Virus record (IMG/VR): IMGVR_UViG_3300037504_000175
Span: 1 to 38,256 of that record
Reading direction: 5' to 3' (one strand)
Source of the DNA: a virus
Length of the DNA stretch: 38,256 nt
Position 1 is the first letter of the stretch. The number at the start of each line of letters is the position of its first letter. The notes below the pieces were generated by a model. That model saw only the letters and a list, made by a program, of their open reading frames with translations. It searched no databases and was not told the origin of the DNA. The translations under genes and the position numbers were made by a program. Below are positions 3,027 through 38,132 of the stretch, piece by piece.

Positions 3027-6000
3027 TTAGCTCTTCTCCGCTTCTAATATAATTTCATGTATTTCAAGATCATTAGTAGATGCACTATTTTCTTCGACCT
3101 CAATACTAAACTTCTCACCATTTGCTCGTATTGGCTTACGTACTCGTGTTATAGATGAAGATGCGGGGTATGATATAACACGGCTTGTTGGAATTATGTT
3201 GCCTGAATATGTATAAGTGTTTATGCCATATACAGTTGTGAAAGATTCGTCTTCAGTATACACAGTACCGTTATAAGAAACACTATCACTTAACACAGTG
3301 TATGATATGCCACCGACAAGGTCACCACTAGCAACCGTAGTCTCGCCATCTATATAGATACGCATTGTTAATGCTGCACCTGATTTGTAATTCAACCACA
3401 CATAACGTATAGTTTCAGGGCGTTCGTATGATATTACAAAGCGTTTTGATTTTATTTTACCTGTTGTTTGCCCTTGAGCTACACTCTCATCAAGCGTATA
3501 TATACGATAATCCGAATCATTATAAAATGCACGCCCAATTGCCTGCCCGTTCTCATCTTCAGTCATCAGGTCAATATCAAGGTCGCTTGTTATCTCACGC
3601 CATCTATTCTTATTTATATCATATGCCCAATATTCAGAACCAAGTTCAAATACCATTTCGGCTTTAGAAGGATCAAATATAGACTCTACATTCTCTTTCT
3701 GTGTACGTGTAAGGTCATTGAACACGTCATATATAGGGTCTGATATACGCGCCTGCTTGATTTGTGATGCATCAGCTTCAGCAAGGTCATTCGGATTTAA
3801 TCTATATATACCATCCTCATATATCACATAAAGATTATTGGTCTGGTCATTATATCCTTCATCGGCAAGGTTGCCAATACCGGCACGTGACTCGATTACA
3901 TTCCATGCAGCAGGGTTATCTGGCGCTGATTTTACATTTAGAATTATTAACGATTGTTCGTTCATGAATACAGGATTACCAAACAAGTCAGCAATTCCGG
4001 TCTCATCACCTTGTGCGTTTAAACGTATAAAGTTACTTACAGGTGTTACGTCGTACTGCTGTAACTCACTGTACACCAACGAGTTATCACGTTGTTCGTT
4101 TTCACCGCCAGGGTCAAGAACAACATCACCGTACTGGAATAGCCTGTTTGCAATAATCTTACCATAACGCCCGTTAACCTTTATTGATGTTTCGCCTTCA
4201 AGCGGTGAAGCTGCACCTTCAATAAGGTTGTTGTCGAATACAGCAGCACGTATATCATTATACACCTTTTCTTTAGCGTTGTATATTTGCTCAATATGAG
4301 CGCCTGTAAGGGCTACGTTGTATAGCGATACTTCATCAAGTGTACCCTCTCCATATGACGAAACACCGTTCCATCCCATCATCATCACACCATCATATAC
4401 ATTACCAAAACTTAACGATTTCACAGCCACCGAGTCGCCGTCAATATAATATTTGACAACGCTATTATTGTGGGTGATAGCAAAATGATGCCATGTACCA
4501 TTGACCTTATCAGCATCGACCGTGTGTGTCACGCCGCCACCAGTGTTTGTAAAATAATCCCACCCGCGATCATCTCCTATCCATGATGAAAACAAAGAAG
4601 AAGAACCGTCACTTTTATGTATAAAGGGACTATGTGTGTCCTCTGATCTGTTGTATCGCATCCAATACGATAGAGTAAGTTGATCTTCAATTCCTAATGG
4701 ATTAGTACCTATTCGGATATAGTCATCTGTACCGTCAAAATACTTTGCTGAGCCGGTCGTGCCCGCTGTGTCGGCAGCATTGTAGTTTCGACCATTGTTG
4801 CCGTTGTTTGTATTATCATATGCCGTACTGTCATCAAAGCTCCAATATGCCACTAACCCATCATCGTATTCCTCATACCAATACGTACCATCAGCCGCCC
4901 CCATAATGACGTGATAATGATCACGGAATCCCTCATCTATAGTAGCGTCTATCTGTATTGCTTTCTCAAAGTTACGTGTTGTTGCATATTCAGGGGTTTC
5001 ATCATGGAACACTGTACCAGTCGTAGTCGCCGAATACGGTTCATTAATCGTTATCGTGCGTTGAGAAGTCGAATCAACCACATACAGCGTATCAGTGTAT
5101 GTTGCCGCAAAATTAATGTATAATACATCGCCAATTTCGAGATGCCCGAGTCCAAGCCCCCACAATGTTGCTCTACCCGCACTATTTGTCACCGAATCGA
5201 ATGTTGCATCGGCAATATTAATATCGTCTATATCAATCACACCACCGTAAAGCGTGTTGTTTTCTACGTTGTTTTCTGTTATAACAACATCGTCACCCGA
5301 ATACATACCGGTAGAATCACCGTCAACAGACGTATTTACAGACGACACTGTTCTGTATAATACCCATGCATCAGACCAGTTGCTCTCAAAATCAGTGTTG
5401 CAGTCGGTCGAATCCGCATCAATGTAAAATATATCGTTACCTGTTCCATCAGGATTTTCAATCTTAATACTATTTACACCGTCATGGATAGTATATGTAG
5501 TCCCTGCTGAAGTAGTAAAGCTATACGATGATAATGCTGGGATATAGCATGCTCTATCACCACTTGATGCTTTAACACTGTCACGATATGGCACAGTGGG
5601 TCTGAAACGCAATCTATCGACAGTTATGAGCTTATTGTACCCTGTGAGGTTATCCGATGAACGGTATAGTACATTAGATGTAATACGTTCATTCACATCA
5701 GCCGTATCACCTATATCTACAGTGAGTTTACCCATAGCTCCATCGCCAAGCTGTGCGGAAAATGGTACGCCGACAAGCCCCTCTTCAATACCGTCATATT
5801 GTGCGGAAAAGCGATAGAATACAGTGTCATCCATTGTGCCGGTGTGTGTTAGCTCATCGACAGTCACGTCAAATGTAGGCGTTTCAGGTGTAGCGGTATC
5901 ATCATAAAAATCAGCAGTGGGGATGTATAGGCTATCGAATAGTGTACGGTCAATGTAGCCGTACCAGATAGGTTTCGCTTCGTTACCGCTTATTTCGCCT

Positions 6001-7373
6001 ACATCACCTGGGAGTATGCGTAATATTTCATTGGCTTGGAATATTGGGTTGCTGGCGTCTTTGTGGTAATAGGTTTGATTTAAGTTTAGAGAGTCAAGTT
6101 CCCCTGAATTAATGGCTTGATATACTAAAACTGAACCGGCAGATGTTATTACAGGCATAATCACGCTATGGTTACCATCAAATTTGTTGCTGTCATATGT
6201 ATAAAGATTATCCGCGCTATCGGCATAAGTAGCTGTATTGGCATACAAAAAAGAAGACTTACGGAATCTTGTCGCATAAACGGTATCGCCCTCTAACGTG
6301 TAAAAAGACGAGACAAATCCAACTTCTTGAAAGTAACGATAGCTTAATCCGTCATCTGTGCTTATATATATGTCGCTGCCTGATGTAGAACCTAAGTATA
6401 TTACAGATGTGCTTGTATCTTCGTAAATAGCATCTATCTGTGCAGCAATTGACTCATCATCAATCGTTGTCCATGACAACCCATCGTCAGTAGACCTATA
6501 CATATTATAAGACGCATCACCACTTAAAATAGTGCCGGAGCTTAGTTGTTCGAGTGAGGTAATACTATAACCTGTACTTAAAACAGTTTCAAAAGTATAA
6601 CCATCATCTGTTGAACGATAAATGTTTCCTGATAAATCAGCAGCTAAAAGAGTGTTTGAGCTGGTATAGAGCAACTCATCTATGTCAATATTATTACCAA
6701 AAGCATCGTATCTAATAGCAAATGTTTTTCCACTATCTGTGCTCGCAAACAAAACACCATATTCAATGGGGAATGCCTCTATATTTTCACCACCGACAAA
6801 TATTGTCGCTTCATCTTTACTCTCAATAGCTCCCCAAATGTAATCGATAGCTCCACTAATCTGGTACAACACCGTATCAGATGTTGCACCATAATCAGTA
6901 GACCTGAATACGCTAGCAGCATACAGCCCATAGATATAACCGCTACCAACATATATTATTTCTTTACCAAATCCATTTGGGTACGTGGGTGCAGATGTAG
7001 AGGTGAAAGATAGGCCCCCATCATCAGAATATTTGTAAACTGAATTATGTTGCGGTATGACAAAAATTAATGTATCACTTATTGCTTCTGAATCAACGCA
7101 GAAACCACCTAAATTAGTGGAGTCATTAAAAACTTCAAACCATCGCGCATTTAATTTTGTTCCCCACCCAAACGTCTTCTCAAGTACACTCCCCGTTGTT
7201 GACCGCATGTTCTCCATTTCCTGAAATACTTCAGGCGGTAAGTCTTCAGGGTCATCAAACGTGTTTACACCGGCAAATTGCTTTATACTCAAAGCAATTG
7301 TATCACCGTATACTATTGCAACGGTTATAAATAGCGCAATAATTATATATGTTATAGCGATGTTTTTACGCAT
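3027..7373 (-). CDS. Giant nozzle-like tail protein with BNR repeats and LamG domain
   Basis: 1448 residues from ATG 7373, chosen because GGAGA precedes it and it begins 5 bases after the upstream stop; a longer frame to 7430 overlaps that gene. Residues 1-23 form a signal-peptide-like hydrophobic segment (MRKNIAITYIIIALF...). The next ~50 residues (IKQFAGVNTFDDPEDLPPE) and the C-terminal third (NSLVYSELQQYD, EQSLIILNV, NNLYVIYEDGIYRLNP) resemble podovirus nozzle/stabilisation proteins. Between them lie about five Asp-box (BNR) motifs such as STDSGKTF and STDDGYTF in the first ~370 residues, and a LamG/concanavalin-like domain (GLVAYWSFDDS ... GTLDEVSLYNVALTG) at about 850-1050. It probably forms the tail tip with glycan-binding modules. 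The domain mosaic is odd for a nozzle protein. Confidence 0.75.
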   Translation of the reverse strand: MRKNIAITYIIIALFITVAIVYGDTIALSIKQFAGVNTFDDPEDLPPEVFQEMENMRSTTGSVLEKTFGWGTKLNARWFEVFNDSTNLGGFCVDSEAISDTLIFVIPQHNSVYKYSDDGGLSFTSTSAPTYPNGFGKEIIYVGSGYIYGLYAASVFRSTDYGATSDTVLYQISGAIDYIWGAIESKDEATIFVGGENIEAFPIEYGVLFASTDSGKTFAIRYDAFGNNIDIDELLYTSSNTLLAADLSGNIYRSTDDGYTFETVLSTGYSITSLEQLSSGTILSGDASYNMYRSTDDGLSWTTIDDESIAAQIDAIYEDTSTSVIYLGSTSGSDIYISTDDGLSYRYFQEVGFVSSFYTLEGDTVYATRFRKSSFLYANTATYADSADNLYTYDSNKFDGNHSVIMPVITSAGSVLVYQAINSGELDSLNLNQTYYHKDASNPIFQANEILRILPGDVGEISGNEAKPIWYGYIDRTLFDSLYIPTADFYDDTATPETPTFDVTVDELTHTGTMDDTVFYRFSAQYDGIEEGLVGVPFSAQLGDGAMGKLTVDIGDTADVNERITSNVLYRSSDNLTGYNKLITVDRLRFRPTVPYRDSVKASSGDRACYIPALSSYSFTTSAGTTYTIHDGVNSIKIENPDGTGNDIFYIDADSTDCNTDFESNWSDAWVLYRTVSSVNTSVDGDSTGMYSGDDVVITENNVENNTLYGGVIDIDDINIADATFDSVTNSAGRATLWGLGLGHLEIGDVLYINFAATYTDTLYVVDSTSQRTITINEPYSATTTGTVFHDETPEYATTRNFEKAIQIDATIDEGFRDHYHVIMGAADGTYWYEEYDDGLVAYWSFDDSTAYDNTNNGNNGRNYNAADTAGTTGSAKYFDGTDDYIRIGTNPLGIEDQLTLSYWMRYNRSEDTHSPFIHKSDGSSSLFSSWIGDDRGWDYFTNTGGGVTHTVDADKVNGTWHHFAITHNNSVVKYYIDGDSVAVKSLSFGNVYDGVMMMGWNGVSSYGEGTLDEVSLYNVALTGAHIEQIYNAKEKVYNDIRAAVFDNNLIEGAASPLEGETSIKVNGRYGKIIANRLFQYGDVVLDPGGENEQRDNSLVYSELQQYDVTPVSNFIRLNAQGDETGIADLFGNPVFMNEQSLIILNVKSAPDNPAAWNVIESRAGIGNLADEGYNDQTNNLYVIYEDGIYRLNPNDLAEADASQIKQARISDPIYDVFNDLTRTQKENVESIFDPSKAEMVFELGSEYWAYDINKNRWREITSDLDIDLMTEDENGQAIGRAFYNDSDYRIYTLDESVAQGQTTGKIKSKRFVISYERPETIRYVWLNYKSGAALTMRIYIDGETTVASGDLVGGISYTVLSDSVSYNGTVYTEDESFTTVYGINTYTYSGNIIPTSRVISYPASSSITRVRKPIRANGEKFSIEVEENSASTNDLEIHEIILEAEKS

Positions 7374-7377
7374 ATAA

Positions 7378-8343
7378 TCAATATCTCCGTTTGTTCGGGA
7401 CAAATTGTAACGGTCTACTCTCTGAATCAAGCGTCATTATATCACGTTTTGTTTTCATAGCCATTGGTATAACGTGTGACTGAAATGCCTGTATGCTTTG
7501 AGGTGACATTGCACTTGCAAATTCAGGGTACACCTCTACAGCCAAATTAAACTTAAGGCATCGTATCCATTCATCAGGGAAATCTGCATCCGTATCAGTC
7601 CCTTTGAATATATCAATCGGCATCCTCGCACTCAACCGTAACTGCTGATTACTCACATTTGACGGTCTCCATACGTATAGCGTACCATTTGTTATCGTAG
7701 GGTCATAATATACCTGTAGTGTTGTGCCTTCTGTATATTTGTCAAATTGCTCGAAATATCTATCGTCTGAAACAACCTCAATTAATATCTCATCGTCTGC
7801 TGACCGTCTACGTGTCGCATCGTATATATCTATAGGCCTATTAATAATAGTTGTATATGCGTATACCTCATTGCCCGATGCGGTATCTCCTGTCAAAGAT
7901 GCTGTCAACGTTATTGTTGATCCTGATGGCGCTCCATTTACCGTAGTCCATTGTATAGTGTTATCGTCTAACACAATACCTATATTGTCACCGTCTGATA
8001 TTCCTGTTATACTATCTACAGTTATTGTCGAATCACCCGAAGAAGCAGCAGCGCTCAACTCTGTCTCTACAAACGATTCTGTGGCATGGTCTCCTGTCGG
8101 GCCGAGACTATATGACTGCTTATTACCTTTTTGCAGAAACACATATATATCTTTAACTTGCCATCTGCCAACACCTGTTTTTTGCCAATGCACTATCATT
8201 TGATTTAATGCATCTACAATATTCTTATATTTTTCAGGCGATACGGCACGAGTAGCTTCATCATCACCGAGTAGTAAACGCAGTGCACCATTGACTATCG
8301 TATTTGCTGTTTTTGTTAAAGTTACCTCACCGGAAGTAGCCAT
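7378..8343 (-). CDS. Head-tail adaptor / gp4-like tail accessory protein
   Basis: 321 residues. The N-terminus is helical (TANTIVNGALRLLLGDDEA ... ALNQMIVHWQKTG), as in P22 gp4-like packaged-DNA-stabilising adaptors. A beta-rich insert at about 95-155 (STITVDSITGISDGDNIGI) follows, then a conserved-looking C-terminal part (RPIDIYDATRRRSADDE, PDEWIRCLKFNLAVEV). It sits immediately upstream of the nozzle-like gene, which matches the gp4 to gp10 order of short-tailed phages. The assignment rests on motif memory and synteny, not on a search. Confidence 0.65.
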   Translation of the reverse strand: MATSGEVTLTKTANTIVNGALRLLLGDDEATRAVSPEKYKNIVDALNQMIVHWQKTGVGRWQVKDIYVFLQKGNKQSYSLGPTGDHATESFVETELSAAASSGDSTITVDSITGISDGDNIGIVLDDNTIQWTTVNGAPSGSTITLTASLTGDTASGNEVYAYTTIINRPIDIYDATRRRSADDEILIEVVSDDRYFEQFDKYTEGTTLQVYYDPTITNGTLYVWRPSNVSNQQLRLSARMPIDIFKGTDTDADFPDEWIRCLKFNLAVEVYPEFASAMSPQSIQAFQSHVIPMAMKTKRDIMTLDSESRPLQFVPNKRRY

Positions 8344-33365: not shown

Positions 33366-33500
33366 TTCGTGTCCTGAAGCTTATCGTGACATACCCCGAG
33401 GCAAGCCTCAAGGATTCCTAATTCATAGAAGGTTGCTTGCTATAATAGCCAAGTCTTACATCTTCTCCAAAGGCGTGAATTTCCCCTTGCCCAGGGGTAC
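33366..33500 (-). ncRNA. TnpB right-end RNA (reRNA) with guide
   Basis: In IS200/IS605 elements the TnpB guide RNA is the 3' end of tnpB plus the right end and the adjacent flank. Here the scaffold is 33386-33500, with the RE hairpin at 33394-33413, and the guide is the flank GATAAGCTTCAGGACACG, directly after TATGTCAC. The 5' border is approximate. Predicted from family rules and the border shared with the solo copy at 19183. Confidence 0.6.
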
Positions 33501-34681
33501 AAAATGCAAAATTTAATATATTCCTTGCAGCTAAAATGTCTCTGTCGTGTTTGGCTCCGCAGTTACAAGTCCAATGTCTGTCTTTGAGCAACAGTTTATT
33601 ATTAATGTAGCCACACTGATCACACATTTTGCTAGATGGGTCAAACCTTCCTATGGTTAAAACATGCTTACCGTACCAATCAGACTTGTAGTCAAGAAAA
33701 GTACGGAAAGTCCTCCATCCAACATCAGAAATACATTTAGCTAATTTGTGATTTCTAATCATGCCTGAAACATTTAAATCCTCAAGACACACCGCTTGGT
33801 TTTCGTCAATGAGTCTTTTGGATAGCTTGTGCAAAAAATCTTTCCGTTGATTAGAAATTTTTTCATGCATTTTTGCTAACTGCTTTCTCGCTTTATTTCT
33901 ATTTGATGAACCTTTTTTCTTCTTTGAAAGTTGTCTTTGTTTTCTTCGAAGTTTATTTTCTGATCGTTTAAGATGCCTTGGATTATCTACTTTTTCACTA
34001 GTAGATAGCGTTGCAAAATGCTTTATACCTAAATCAACACCAATACTATTACGCCGTTCAGGGCTGCACTTAACGGGCAATTCTTCATTATTCTCTACAG
34101 TAATAGAAGCAAAGTATTTACCAGAAGAAGTCATAGAAATAATCACAGTTCTTATTTTACCATCAAACTTACGATGAAACTTGCATTTTATTCCTTCTCG
34201 AAACTTCGCTACATACAATATATTATTTTCAAAATCAACCTTACTGTGTTGTGGAAATTGACATGATTGTTTTCTAAACTTCTTTTTAAATTTAGGATAC
34301 CTTGATTGCTTTTTAAAAAATCTTTGAAAAGCATTGTCAAGATTCCTAAAAGCCATTTGTAATGATTGTGAATTGACTTCTCTAAGCCACTCATATTCAG
34401 ACTTCATGTTTTTGAGTTCTTTAATAAGATCAAAACAAGAAGGTGATTTACCCGTATTCTGATAGGATTTGTTTTTCTTATCAAGCCCCCAGTTATATAG
34501 AAATCTCACGCATCCAAAATGCTTTACAAGAAGCTCTTGTTGTTTCTTATTAGGATATATTCTGTATTTGTATGCTCGTATCATAATGTTTATAGTATAA
34601 TAGATTTTCCTGTAAATGTCGAGTAATTTTTTAACTTATTTTACCAATTCATCCTCGGGGCAAGCCCACGAGGTTTTCTTG
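33386..34681 (-). mobile_element. IS1341-type element (IS200/IS605 superfamily) with TnpB
   Basis: Left-end hairpin at 34653-34673 and right-end hairpin at 33394-33413 (8-bp stem, CTTG loop). The left flank is TTAC (34685-34682), a typical IS605-family target, and the right boundary is fixed by the divergence from the solo copy at 19183. No TnpA (Y1) gene is inside, so the element would need TnpA in trans. No target duplication is expected. The element lies at the 3' end of the antirepressor gene. Confidence 0.8.
33418..34584 (-). CDS. tnpB: TnpB RNA-guided nuclease
   Basis: 388 residues. The N-terminal region (AYKYRIYPNKKQQELL) and HTH-like part precede the RuvC core: IGVDLGIKHFATLS with D184, VCLEDLNVSGM with E268, and the zinc finger C321, C324, C340, C342 with HDRDILAARNI (D347/D349). 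All catalytic residues are present and the reading frame is intact. TnpB uses a reRNA to cleave double-stranded DNA near a target-adjacent motif, the ancestor of Cas12. The canonical N in DRDxNAA is L here; it may not matter. Confidence 0.92.
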   Translation of the reverse strand: MIRAYKYRIYPNKKQQELLVKHFGCVRFLYNWGLDKKNKSYQNTGKSPSCFDLIKELKNMKSEYEWLREVNSQSLQMAFRNLDNAFQRFFKKQSRYPKFKKKFRKQSCQFPQHSKVDFENNILYVAKFREGIKCKFHRKFDGKIRTVIISMTSSGKYFASITVENNEELPVKCSPERRNSIGVDLGIKHFATLSTSEKVDNPRHLKRSENKLRRKQRQLSKKKKGSSNRNKARKQLAKMHEKISNQRKDFLHKLSKRLIDENQAVCLEDLNVSGMIRNHKLAKCISDVGWRTFRTFLDYKSDWYGKHVLTIGRFDPSSKMCDQCGYINNKLLLKDRHWTCNCGAKHDRDILAARNILNFAFCTPGQGEIHAFGEDVRLGYYSKQPSMN

Positions 34682-35427: not shown

Positions 35428-35829
35428 TTAGAACGGCAAATCACCGTCTTCGTCAGGTTCAGGTTTACTTTCTTCTTTCTTATCCTGCTTCGGCTTCGCC
35501 TGTGACGCCTTTTCATTTTTCAATGTGAAATTAACAAACCCAAATATCATAAACTTTGTCTCGTTATGCTTATGTCCATCCTTGTCTGTCCATACATTAG
35601 GTATCGCCTTACCCTCTACGTGCAGCATGTCACCCTTTGCTGTATGCTGATCAATTAGTTCTGCTGTCTTGCCGAATGCAACACAGTTAGCGAACAATGC
35701 GTCACGGTCTTTCCCCTCATTGACAGCAAGAGTAAATGTGCAAACATCTTTGCCATTTGACGTGCTTTTCATCTCGGGATTCCGTACCATATTACCTATA
35801 AAAAATACTTTGTTAAACGAAAATGCCAT
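35428..35829 (-). CDS. ssb: Single-stranded DNA-binding protein
   Basis: 133 residues from ATG 35829. OB-fold pattern: FNKVFFIGNMVRNPEMKSTSNGKDVCTFTLAVNE, then FANCVAFGKTAELIDQHTAKGDMLHVEGKAI, and the acidic tail with a final Phe (EPDEDGDLPF), which recruits partners. A longer in-frame extension to 35967 is from the IscB element and is not real. The native ribosome site appears to be at 37380-37395 on the other side of the IscB element, so present translation start is poorly supported. Confidence 0.85.
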   Translation of the reverse strand: MAFSFNKVFFIGNMVRNPEMKSTSNGKDVCTFTLAVNEGKDRDALFANCVAFGKTAELIDQHTAKGDMLHVEGKAIPNVWTDKDGHKHNETKFMIFGFVNFTLKNEKASQAKPKQDKKEESKPEPDEDGDLPF

Positions 35830-37374
35830 AGAATTTAGGCACAGGGAACCACGGTGGCTTGCCCCGTGGGGGAATGTGCCTTCCTCCTTTCTACTAAAGT
35901 TGTTGTTCTTGCGCTTTTCCTCATACAGTTTTTCTTTATTTGAATTTGTCCGTTTATTATATTCCAAAATATATCACATATAGAAAAACGTCCATCTGAA
36001 CGTTTCCCCCTGACAAACCCAATACCTTTAGGTGTTTGAACGTAATCAAATTTTTTCAATCCAAACAGTTTACCAGTTGGTATTCTTTTCTCTGAACGGC
36101 TTCCTTTTGTTTGTTGATAATCACCTTTAGAAACATGTTTTTTGTAATAAACGTTATTAGATAAGTCAACAATTTCACCCCCTTCACAGCAAATTGCCAC
36201 AGCGTCATTATAATGAGTTTTTGGTAGTTTTAAAATTTGTTCTCTTTTGAATTTGGTTTCGTAACCAAATGTTTCTTCAAAACTACCAAACCGCTTTTTA
36301 AGTTGAGATTTTACAATTCCAACTTCAGTAGCGTCTTTTGTTTTGCTTCTTGTACCTTTGATTGTAAATTCTCCATTGTGCAACTTATCGTGACAAGATT
36401 CACACAACGTAATCAAATTATCTGTTGAGTTTGTCCCACCATTACTTCGAAATATAATATGATGAACGTGTAGTTTTCCTTTTTTATTACATTTTTTACA
36501 TTTGTAACCATCACGATGTAAAACATAAGCCTTTATATTATAAAATCCCTTTTGGTTTCCATTTTGATATTCCCACTTGCTAACCTCGGGATTAGATATT
36601 TTATGAATATCAAAACTTGCTGTTTCTACCACCCAGTTGCTTACTGGTAATATAGATTCAACAAACTTCTTTTCCCTTAGATGAGAATCGACTTTAGACT
36701 TAATGCTTGGAGCAAGTCTTCCTTTTTTCCGAGAAGAAGCTCTGTTTTGCCAACGTGGTTTTCTATATCTTGTTTTTCTACTGCGTCTGCTTCTACGATA
36801 CATTCTTCTTTGTTTCATCTTCTTCGAAACATCTTGCCTAATTTGAATTTCTGATTGATAAATTACTTTATCACAAGTTATTGCAGCACAACCAATTGTT
36901 TTACTACCCGTGTCCATTCCCGCTACCACTTCTTGTGTGTATTCGGTTGTATCAACAAGAAGTTTAATAGTAAACGGGGTTTTTCTGACCACTTTTGCTT
37001 TACCTCCTTTTAACAATAATCTTGCTATTACAGGTTCGCAAGGCATTAATGGTTTTGAGTTTTTGTTTATTACGTAAACTTTCATAAGTTAAATACTCCT
37101 AACTGTTAAATTAGGGTTGTGCGTATCCAGAGCATCGGAGTTGCACTGGAATCCGACTTCCCCTCGCAGGGTTAAAAAGCCTATGCAATTGAGGTTGACT
37201 GTCCCTACCATCACAGGACTGTTTACAGTGCCTCGAGAGTGCCACAAACTGGGGTGGCATTCGTGGGTCTCTATTTGCTTTTTAACGTTTACTAACAACA
37301 TTACCTCCAGTTAGTCTGCTGGTAACCTTGTGGCTTTTTTTCAAAAGCCACGGGGATTGCCCCGTGGTAGGTTA
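35830..37374 (-). mobile_element. IscB element (IS200/IS605-like)
   Basis: Hairpins near the ends, CCACGG GG CAATC CCCGTGG type at 37348-37367 and CCACGG...CCGTGG at 35849-35869, enclose omega RNA and iscB. Left flank AAGGAGAAAAGCAATG and right flank ATGGCATTTTCG share ATG, so the junction is placed at the ssb start codon; the exact border is uncertain by a few bases. No TnpA is inside. The element separates an FlbD-like gene from ssb. Confidence 0.75.
35835..37085 (-). CDS. iscB: IscB RNA-guided nuclease (HNH + RuvC)
   Basis: 416 residues. PLMP motif at 12-15 (NSKPLMPCEPVIARLLLKGG), RuvC-I D58 in GMDTGSKT, Arg-rich bridge helix about 90-125, RuvC-II E154 in VVETASFDI, HNH 186-240 with C196/C199, HH208-209 and C228/C231, and RuvC-III HYNDA (H291, D294). 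All catalytic residues are intact. IscB with omega RNA cuts double-stranded DNA and is the ancestor of Cas9. The last residues (QATVVPCA) are read through the right-end hairpin region. Confidence 0.93.
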   Translation of the reverse strand: MKVYVINKNSKPLMPCEPVIARLLLKGGKAKVVRKTPFTIKLLVDTTEYTQEVVAGMDTGSKTIGCAAITCDKVIYQSEIQIRQDVSKKMKQRRMYRRSRRSRKTRYRKPRWQNRASSRKKGRLAPSIKSKVDSHLREKKFVESILPVSNWVVETASFDIHKISNPEVSKWEYQNGNQKGFYNIKAYVLHRDGYKCKKCNKKGKLHVHHIIFRSNGGTNSTDNLITLCESCHDKLHNGEFTIKGTRSKTKDATEVGIVKSQLKKRFGSFEETFGYETKFKREQILKLPKTHYNDAVAICCEGGEIVDLSNNVYYKKHVSKGDYQQTKGSRSEKRIPTGKLFGLKKFDYVQTPKGIGFVRGKRSDGRFSICDIFWNIINGQIQIKKNCMRKSARTTTLVERRKAHSPTGQATVVPCA

Positions 37375-37390
37375 CATTGCTTTTCTCCTT
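37086..37390 (-). ncRNA. HEARO / omega RNA of IscB with flank-derived guide
   Basis: Directly upstream of iscB the minus strand has the layout of the HEARO motif: end hairpin at 37348-37367, a GCCACCCCAGTTTGTGGC hairpin, the GGCACTGTAAACAGTCC region, CTCCGATGCTCTGGAT with matching upstream segments, and a terminal CTAATTTAACAGTTAG hairpin just before ATG. In IscB the guide is the flank upstream of the left end, here the sequence ending near GGAGAAAAGCAATG. 5' border of guide is approximate. Confidence 0.8.
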
Positions 37391-37571
37391 CCTGCTTTTT
37401 TATCATTGCCTTTAGTTCTTCGTAGGTCTCTTTCACTTGCAAAGGAGCATAATCGACATGAATTGGATACAAAATCCGGCAAAACCCAGTATCCTCGATC
37501 AAGCCAATCTCATTTATGTTTATGACACATTTTTTGTCAATATCATCTGTCACCTCAATAAACTGACTCAT
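37341..37571 (-). CDS. FlbD-like small protein with truncated, element-derived tail
   Basis: 76 residues as read. FIEVTDDIDKKCVININEIGLIED and VKETYEELKAMIKKQ match the FlbD-type fold (I-E-V-T, N-x-I, V-K-E-T-Y-E-E), seen in small phage proteins too. The last 11 residues (CNLPRGNPRGF) are read from the IscB element left end. Natively the frame would run about 12 codons into ssb (native joint KQ then WHF...). The function of phage homologues is not known to me. Confidence 0.65.
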   Translation of the reverse strand: MSQFIEVTDDIDKKCVININEIGLIEDTGFCRILYPIHVDYAPLQVKETYEELKAMIKKQEGEKQCNLPRGNPRGF

Positions 37572-37595: not shown

Positions 37596-38132
37596 TCACA
37601 GTTTATCGACATCATCACCAACACGGTGAAACTGATTCGCAAGCTCTTTTATCGCCGCCTGCGCTTTCTGCATTTCTTCATCATCACAATCCAACTGGAA
37701 AAAATGATAGGCGAGTTGTGCGGCAATGCGCTTGTCGACCTTGACATTAAACGATCCACACCACATAGGCCATACTGACATGTCAATGTTTGCACCGCAC
37801 AGGCGGGCATTCTGCATGTTGGCACCTGACAGGCATGCTCTGTACAAGTCTGCATTGTGCAAGTCGGCATATAACAGATTGGCACCAGTCAGGTTGGCAC
37901 CAAACATGTTGGCACCTGACAGGTCGGCTCTGTACAAGCCTGCATTGTGCAAGTCGGCATATAACAGATCGGCACCGCTCAGGTTGGCATGATACAACTT
38001 GGCACCAGTCAGGTTGGCATAGCGCAGGTTGGCATTGCTCAGGTTTAACCTTTTACCATCTTTGCCATCCGTCATTAACCACAACTGATGCGCTTCGTAT
38101 TTCTCTTCAGTTATTACATCGTTAAATTGCAT
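37596..38132 (-). CDS. Pentapeptide-repeat protein, copy 2
   Basis: 178 residues, paralogous to 29864-30385 but on the other strand. Caps: MQFNDVITEEKYEAHQLWL at the start and WPMWCGSFNVKVDKRIAAQLAYHFFQLDCDDEE at the end. The middle is A(N/D)LxxA repeats (SGADLLYADLHNAGLYRADL). Internal DNA repeats are visible (TGCATTGTGCAAGTCGGCAT near 37850 and 37940). AAGGAGTAAGTT upstream serves as ribosome site. Confidence 0.8.
   Translation of the reverse strand: MQFNDVITEEKYEAHQLWLMTDGKDGKRLNLSNANLRYANLTGAKLYHANLSGADLLYADLHNAGLYRADLSGANMFGANLTGANLLYADLHNADLYRACLSGANMQNARLCGANIDMSVWPMWCGSFNVKVDKRIAAQLAYHFFQLDCDDEEMQKAQAAIKELANQFHRVGDDVDKL

What the first reader, a model, noticed from the sequence alone, without database searches (positions are those of the whole stretch)
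35830..37390. IscB with HEARO/omega RNA inserted at the ssb start codon
A fully intact IscB with PLMP, RuvC and HNH residues and its omega RNA lies between the FlbD-like gene and ssb. The guide position holds sequence ending in the ssb ribosome site. It would direct cleavage to the ssb start of phages lacking the element, a conserved replication gene, a strategy used by homing endonucleases.
Basis: partly seen in the sequence, partly recalled or inferred. Interest (0 to 1): 0.75.

Follow-up and report, generated by a model that had tools for sequence, protein, structure and literature searches.

The report
RNA-guided IscB element before ssb
A phage carries a complete IscB mobile element (a small RNA-guided DNA-cutting enzyme and its guide RNA) inserted exactly at the start codon of its ssb gene, and 39 related elements show that this family often lands at gene start codons and seems to bring a replacement ribosome-binding site with it.

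Summary
On the minus strand a 1546-bp IscB/HEARO element (35830-37375) sits directly before the ssb start codon: omega RNA 37375-37152, then intact IscB (416 aa). The guide position (37376-37391, GAAGGAGAAAAGCAAT) holds the former ssb ribosome site. The flank after the element's right end begins ATGG, fitting the measured NTGA/NTGG target-adjacent motif (TAM) of sister IsrB nickases. The complex should therefore cut the uninterrupted junction and spare the occupied one. No empty-site phage was found, so this step is inferred.

Comparing 40 delimited elements changes the interpretation. All have ATGA/ATGG on the right. Half sit between a Shine-Dalgarno sequence and the start of an open gene, against 6.9% of control sites (p about 2e-13). 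Genes differ: ssb, recA, Toprim protein, tail ring, baseplate, transporter. So ssb is one case of a start-codon habit, not a dedicated ssb strategy. Most right ends also carry an AAGGAGG-type site about 55 nt before the target ATG; looping out the hairpin between leaves 4-14 nt. I infer that the element replaces the ribosome site it displaces. The element is a new member of a known kind; the portable ribosome site, if real, is the new part.

The parts
35830..37375 (-). whole IscB/HEARO element, 1546 bp
   Evidence: shared left end GTAACC and right end before ATGR in relatives of 1507-1658 bp
37376..37391 (-). guide position of the omega RNA (GAAGGAGAAAAGCAAT), the former left flank of the ssb start
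   Evidence: sequence 5' of HEARO model position 1; guide length of 16 is an assumption, effective guides of other IscBs are about 13-16 nt
37385..37390 (-). AAGGAG, former ribosome site of ssb, 9 nt before the ATG in the joined site
37152..37375 (-). HEARO (omega) RNA scaffold
   Evidence: Rfam RF02033, 90.6 bits; 51 of 76 predicted pairs have compensatory changes in 12 relatives
35835..37085 (-). iscB, 416 aa plus stop
   Evidence: NCBIfam guided_IscB 355 bits; Pfam RRXRR and HNH
35883..35889 (-). AAGGAGG near the right end, proposed portable ribosome site
   Evidence: enriched in right ends of relatives and read in different phases
35837..35881 (-). right-end hairpin
   Evidence: predicted -24.1 kcal/mol; same position in relatives
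35826..35829 (-). ATGG: start codon of ssb and proposed TAM
   Evidence: right flank ATGA/ATGG in 40 of 40 delimited elements; IsrB TAMs NTGA/NTG/NTGG
35428..35829 (-). ssb, 133 aa plus stop
   Evidence: Pfam SSB 76 bits
37341..37571 (-). upstream ORF of 76 aa; its part from 37375 down is element sequence. In the joined site it would end ...EGEKQYGIFV* overlapping the ssb start
   Evidence: no family match

Best explanation
This is a transposase-less IS200/IS605-type IscB (HEARO, OMEGA) element that inserted exactly between the ribosome site and the start codon of a phage ssb. Shown: full IscB, full omega RNA with covariation in relatives, exact ends, ATGG on the right, guide position holding the old ribosome site. 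Inferred: the IscB-omega RNA complex reads ATGG as its TAM and cuts alleles in which ribosome site and ATGG are still joined, that is element-free copies, so that repair from an occupied copy restores or spreads the element (retention, homing-like drive). The occupied copy is spared because the guide match is now followed by GTAACC. Also inferred: ssb is still translated because the right end supplies AAGGAGG with a hairpin that brings it near the ATG, and because the iscB stop lies 5 nt before that ATG (coupled re-initiation).
For: Domains and equivalog score; HEARO RNA and covariation; ends and element length; 40/40 right flanks ATGR, 20/40 with Shine-Dalgarno plus open frame against 6.9% of controls; flank joins restore frames in L004 and L016 and a stop/start overlap in L020; uninterrupted L020-type junctions in other Chlamydiae genomes; published TAMs; gene drive shown for TnpB. 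Right-end ribosome site: 72% of right ends have at least 6 matching bases against 5.1% of other ORF windows, iscB stop near the ATG in 25/40, three reading phases, looped-out spacing 4-14 nt in 28 of 28.
Against: No element-free relative of this phage was found, so guide match to a real empty allele is untested here. In the Chlamydiae relatives of the L020 site the guide-side 16 bases match at 15, but the TAM position reads ATAA, so that site would not be a good target today. No transposase is in the record. Cleavage and translation were not measured. For distant relatives the right end was placed by eye.
Confidence: 0.75

Rival explanations
1. A dedicated ssb homing element: the IscB has become tied to this conserved replication gene and spreads from phage to phage at ssb, as free-standing homing endonucleases do.
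For: Position at ssb; intact nuclease; the guide would target the ssb start.
Against: Relatives at 67-80% identity sit at other genes with other guides; ends are transposon-like with right-end hairpins; no second ssb insertion was found.
Confidence: 0.1
2. A passive passenger: the element transposed in with help of a transposase elsewhere and survives only because the start-codon position is harmless; the nuclease has no present role.
For: No Y1 transposase in the record or in the phage records of relatives; many start-codon positions are what survival alone would leave.
Against: IscB is intact and its catalytic blocks are conserved across relatives; the RNA shows compensatory changes. Both point to continued selection on the complex.
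Confidence: 0.15
3. The AAGGAGG block near the right end is a DNA signal for the transposase or a coding constraint, not a ribosome site.
For: It lies at a nearly fixed distance from the end next to a hairpin of the kind IS200/IS605 transposases bind; close relatives share the codons GAA AGG AGG.
Against: In other relatives the same bases are read in another phase, so protein sequence does not explain them; looped-out spacing is in the ribosome-site range in all 28 tested.
Confidence: 0.4

Closest known systems
IscB/HEARO (OMEGA) elements: Rfam RF02033, NCBIfam NF040563 (e.g. OgeuIscB)
   Same: Nuclease domains, omega RNA 5' of the gene, guide taken from the left flank, TAM on the right flank
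   Different: Shorter protein (416 aa against about 496 for OgeuIscB); TAM here ATGG/ATGA, unlike the NWRRNA-type TAM recalled for OgeuIscB in detail; sits in a phage at a start codon
IsrB nickases (PMC9581776)
   Same: 3' TAM of the type NTGA/NTGG and related RNA
   Different: IsrB lacks HNH; this protein has HNH
TnpB of IS200/IS605 elements and its gene-drive role (PMC11870625)
   Same: Guide records the insertion site; element-free copies are cut
   Different: TnpB has its RNA at the 3' end and the TAM at the left; different nuclease family
Free-standing phage homing endonucleases
   Same: Cut element-free alleles of phage genes (general knowledge)
   Different: They recognise DNA by protein and keep to one site; here the RNA guide changes with each insertion

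Membership tests
IscB/HEARO element | RuvC-HNH nuclease of the IscB family | tested here: met
   NCBIfam guided_IscB 355 bits, cutoff 175; Pfam RRXRR, HNH; PDB IscB matches
IscB/HEARO element | HEARO/omega RNA directly upstream | tested here: met
   Rfam RF02033 90.6 bits, full length; covariation
IscB/HEARO element | defined ends and a target motif on the right flank | tested here: met
   ATGR right flank in 40/40 delimited elements, equal lengths
IscB/HEARO element | RNA-guided cleavage of the empty site | not testable with these tools
   needs biochemistry
IS200/IS605-type transposon, autonomous | Y1 transposase TnpA in the element | tested here: not met
   no PF01797 match in the record
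site-specific homing endonuclease at ssb | same site occupied in some relatives and empty in others | tested here: inconclusive
   no close ssb relative found; relatives of the element lie at other genes

The most novel reading that the evidence does not exclude
IscB/HEARO elements are adapted to sit at gene starts: their TAM is the start codon, their guide is the ribosome site, and their right end carries a portable ribosome-binding site with a loop-out hairpin plus a stop codon placed for coupled translation. They could then occupy important phage genes (ssb, recA, tail ring) without silencing them while cutting unoccupied copies.
Probability: 0.45. Interest if true: 0.7.

Novelty: new member of a known kind. 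Interest (0 to 1): 0.55.

Why it matters
It gives a testable reason why IscB elements can live in compact phage genomes: a TAM that coincides with start codons, and ends that appear to restore translation of the gene they split from its ribosome site. If true, guide and TAM together act as a targeting rule for gene starts, and the right end is a small mobile translation signal.

Tried and rejected
Empty site for the window's ssb: blastn against phages, ssb, terminase and upstream-ORF searches of viral contigs, exact junction pattern, ssb against phages and plasmids: nothing close. Empty sites for other elements: L004, L109, L087 and L084, L019 and L016: none; only L020 worked. 'FlbD-like' label: no Pfam support. 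Self-targeting: the best other NTGR site in the window has four mismatches to the 16-nt guide. Insertion at ATGA/GTGA in the original HEARO paper is recalled, not read (not held). Loci whose right or left end I could not place (L085, L090, L096, L098, L102, L108, L110) or that were partial or duplicate (L010, L011, L021) were left out of the count of 40.

Full report
Check of the observation. On the minus strand the order is: a 76-aa ORF (37571-37341), HEARO RNA (37375-37152, Rfam RF02033, 90.6 bits), IscB (37085-35835, 416 aa) and ssb (35829-35428). IscB scores twice NCBI's equivalog cutoff (355 against 175 bits) and aligns with solved IscB structures through the PLMP, RuvC and HNH blocks. 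The record is a 38-kb IMG/VR virus with a terminase, a weak portal match and head proteins, so it is a phage.

Ends and guide. Twelve relatives in viral contigs (67-80% identity) include nine that share the left end GTAAC(C/T)TACC or GTCAACTACC directly after unrelated flanks and a right end directly before ATG. This fixes the window element at 35830-37375, 1546 bp; the delimited relatives measure 1507-1658 bp. Joining the flanks restores an open frame through the junction in L004 and L016 and, in L020, a stop codon of the upstream gene overlapping the start of a phosphate transporter. The joined L020 site occurs uninterrupted in other Chlamydiae genomes at about 80% identity. In L052 the 16 guide-position bases differ at one, but the TAM position reads ATAA instead of ATGA. 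So the relatives show an uninterrupted junction and confirm the ends; they do not show a present-day target. For the window the joined sequence is GCAGGAAGGAGAAAAGCAAT|ATGGCATTTTCG: AAGGAG nine bases before the ssb ATG.

TAM. The right flank is ATGA in 36 and ATGG in 4 of 40 delimited elements. Published assays of the sister nickase IsrB give NTGA, NTG or NTGG, 3' of the target (PMC9581776). The ssb start ATGG fits. After insertion the guide match is followed by GTAACC, so the occupied copy has no TAM there, and no other NTGR site in the window has fewer than four mismatches to the 16-nt guide. I recall that the original description of HEARO noted ATGA or GTGA targets, but that paper was not held, so this is a lead only.

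Start codons in general. I rebuilt the empty site of all 40 elements and asked whether the ATG has a Shine-Dalgarno match of at least four bases in the 15 bases ending 3 nt before it, and an open frame of at least 50 codons. This is so in 20 of 40, against 6.9% of 4684 other ATGR sites in the same DNA (p about 2e-13). Downstream genes include RecA, a Toprim protein, a Dam methylase, RlaP, a GpP-like baseplate protein, a crAss tail ring, an excisionase and a phosphate transporter. Thus ssb is one case of a family habit. Whether the habit reflects the TAM alone or also selection against harmful insertions cannot be told from these data; both are likely, and insertions inside genes (L004, L016) exist.

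The right end. Right ends carry a hairpin, as expected for IS200/IS605-type ends. Just upstream of it, 51-62 nt from the ATG in most elements, lies AAGGAGG or a close variant: six or more matching bases in 72% of right ends against 5.1% of other windows of the same ORFs. In different relatives these bases are read in different phases (22, 7 and 1 in the three phases, one after the stop), so protein sequence does not explain them. With the hairpin looped out the distance to the ATG is 4-14 nt in all 28 elements tested. The iscB stop falls within 6 nt of the ATG, in some overlapping it as ATGA, in 25 of 40, against 10 of 80 in the other frames. The block is present also where the ATG opens no gene, so it belongs to the element and not to the site. 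I infer a portable ribosome site and coupled translation; a DNA-level role at the transposon end remains possible.

Mechanism. No Y1 transposase is in the window or in the phage records with relatives, so movement would be in trans. The nuclease is intact and its RNA covaries (51 of 76 predicted pairs have compensatory changes). The most likely role is cutting of element-free alleles followed by copying from the occupied one, as shown for TnpB in plasmids (PMC11870625). This step is inferred; no cutting was tested and no element-free relative of this phage was found.

Limits. For distant relatives the right end was placed by eye after the hairpin, so the perfect ATGR count is partly guided; close relatives with a shared right-end sequence do not have this problem. 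Relatives are not independent samples, while the tests treat them as if they were. The guide length of 16 is an assumption taken from other IscBs.

Noticed in passing
window 33418-34584 (-): A second OMEGA nuclease: a 388-aa IS200/IS605 TnpB (NCBIfam guided_TnpB 356 bits), also without a Y1 transposase in the record, with hairpin-like ends on both sides. Its guide position and target were not worked out.
   Followed up: partly
window 37596-38132 (-): A 178-aa pentapeptide-repeat protein directly upstream of the 76-aa ORF.
   Followed up: no
L002, L003, L005 against L004, L007, L016, end of iscB: The last 15 or so codons of iscB run through the right-end hairpin in two different reading frames in close relatives, yet stop at the same place 4-5 nt before the target ATG: the hairpin DNA and the stop position are kept, the peptide is not.
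   Followed up: partly
L078 4260-5312: A related IscB element sits directly before the start codon of a full-length phage recA (Pfam RecA 259 bits), another replication/recombination gene.
   Followed up: partly
L020 4001-5252: A decayed copy of the element (frameshifts and stops inside iscB) remains exactly at the DUF47-like/phosphate transporter junction of a Parachlamydiales genome.
   Followed up: yes
window 3027-7430 (-): A 1467-aa protein with a Laminin_G_3 lectin-like domain and a weak sortilin-like stretch, possibly a tail or host-binding protein.
   Followed up: no
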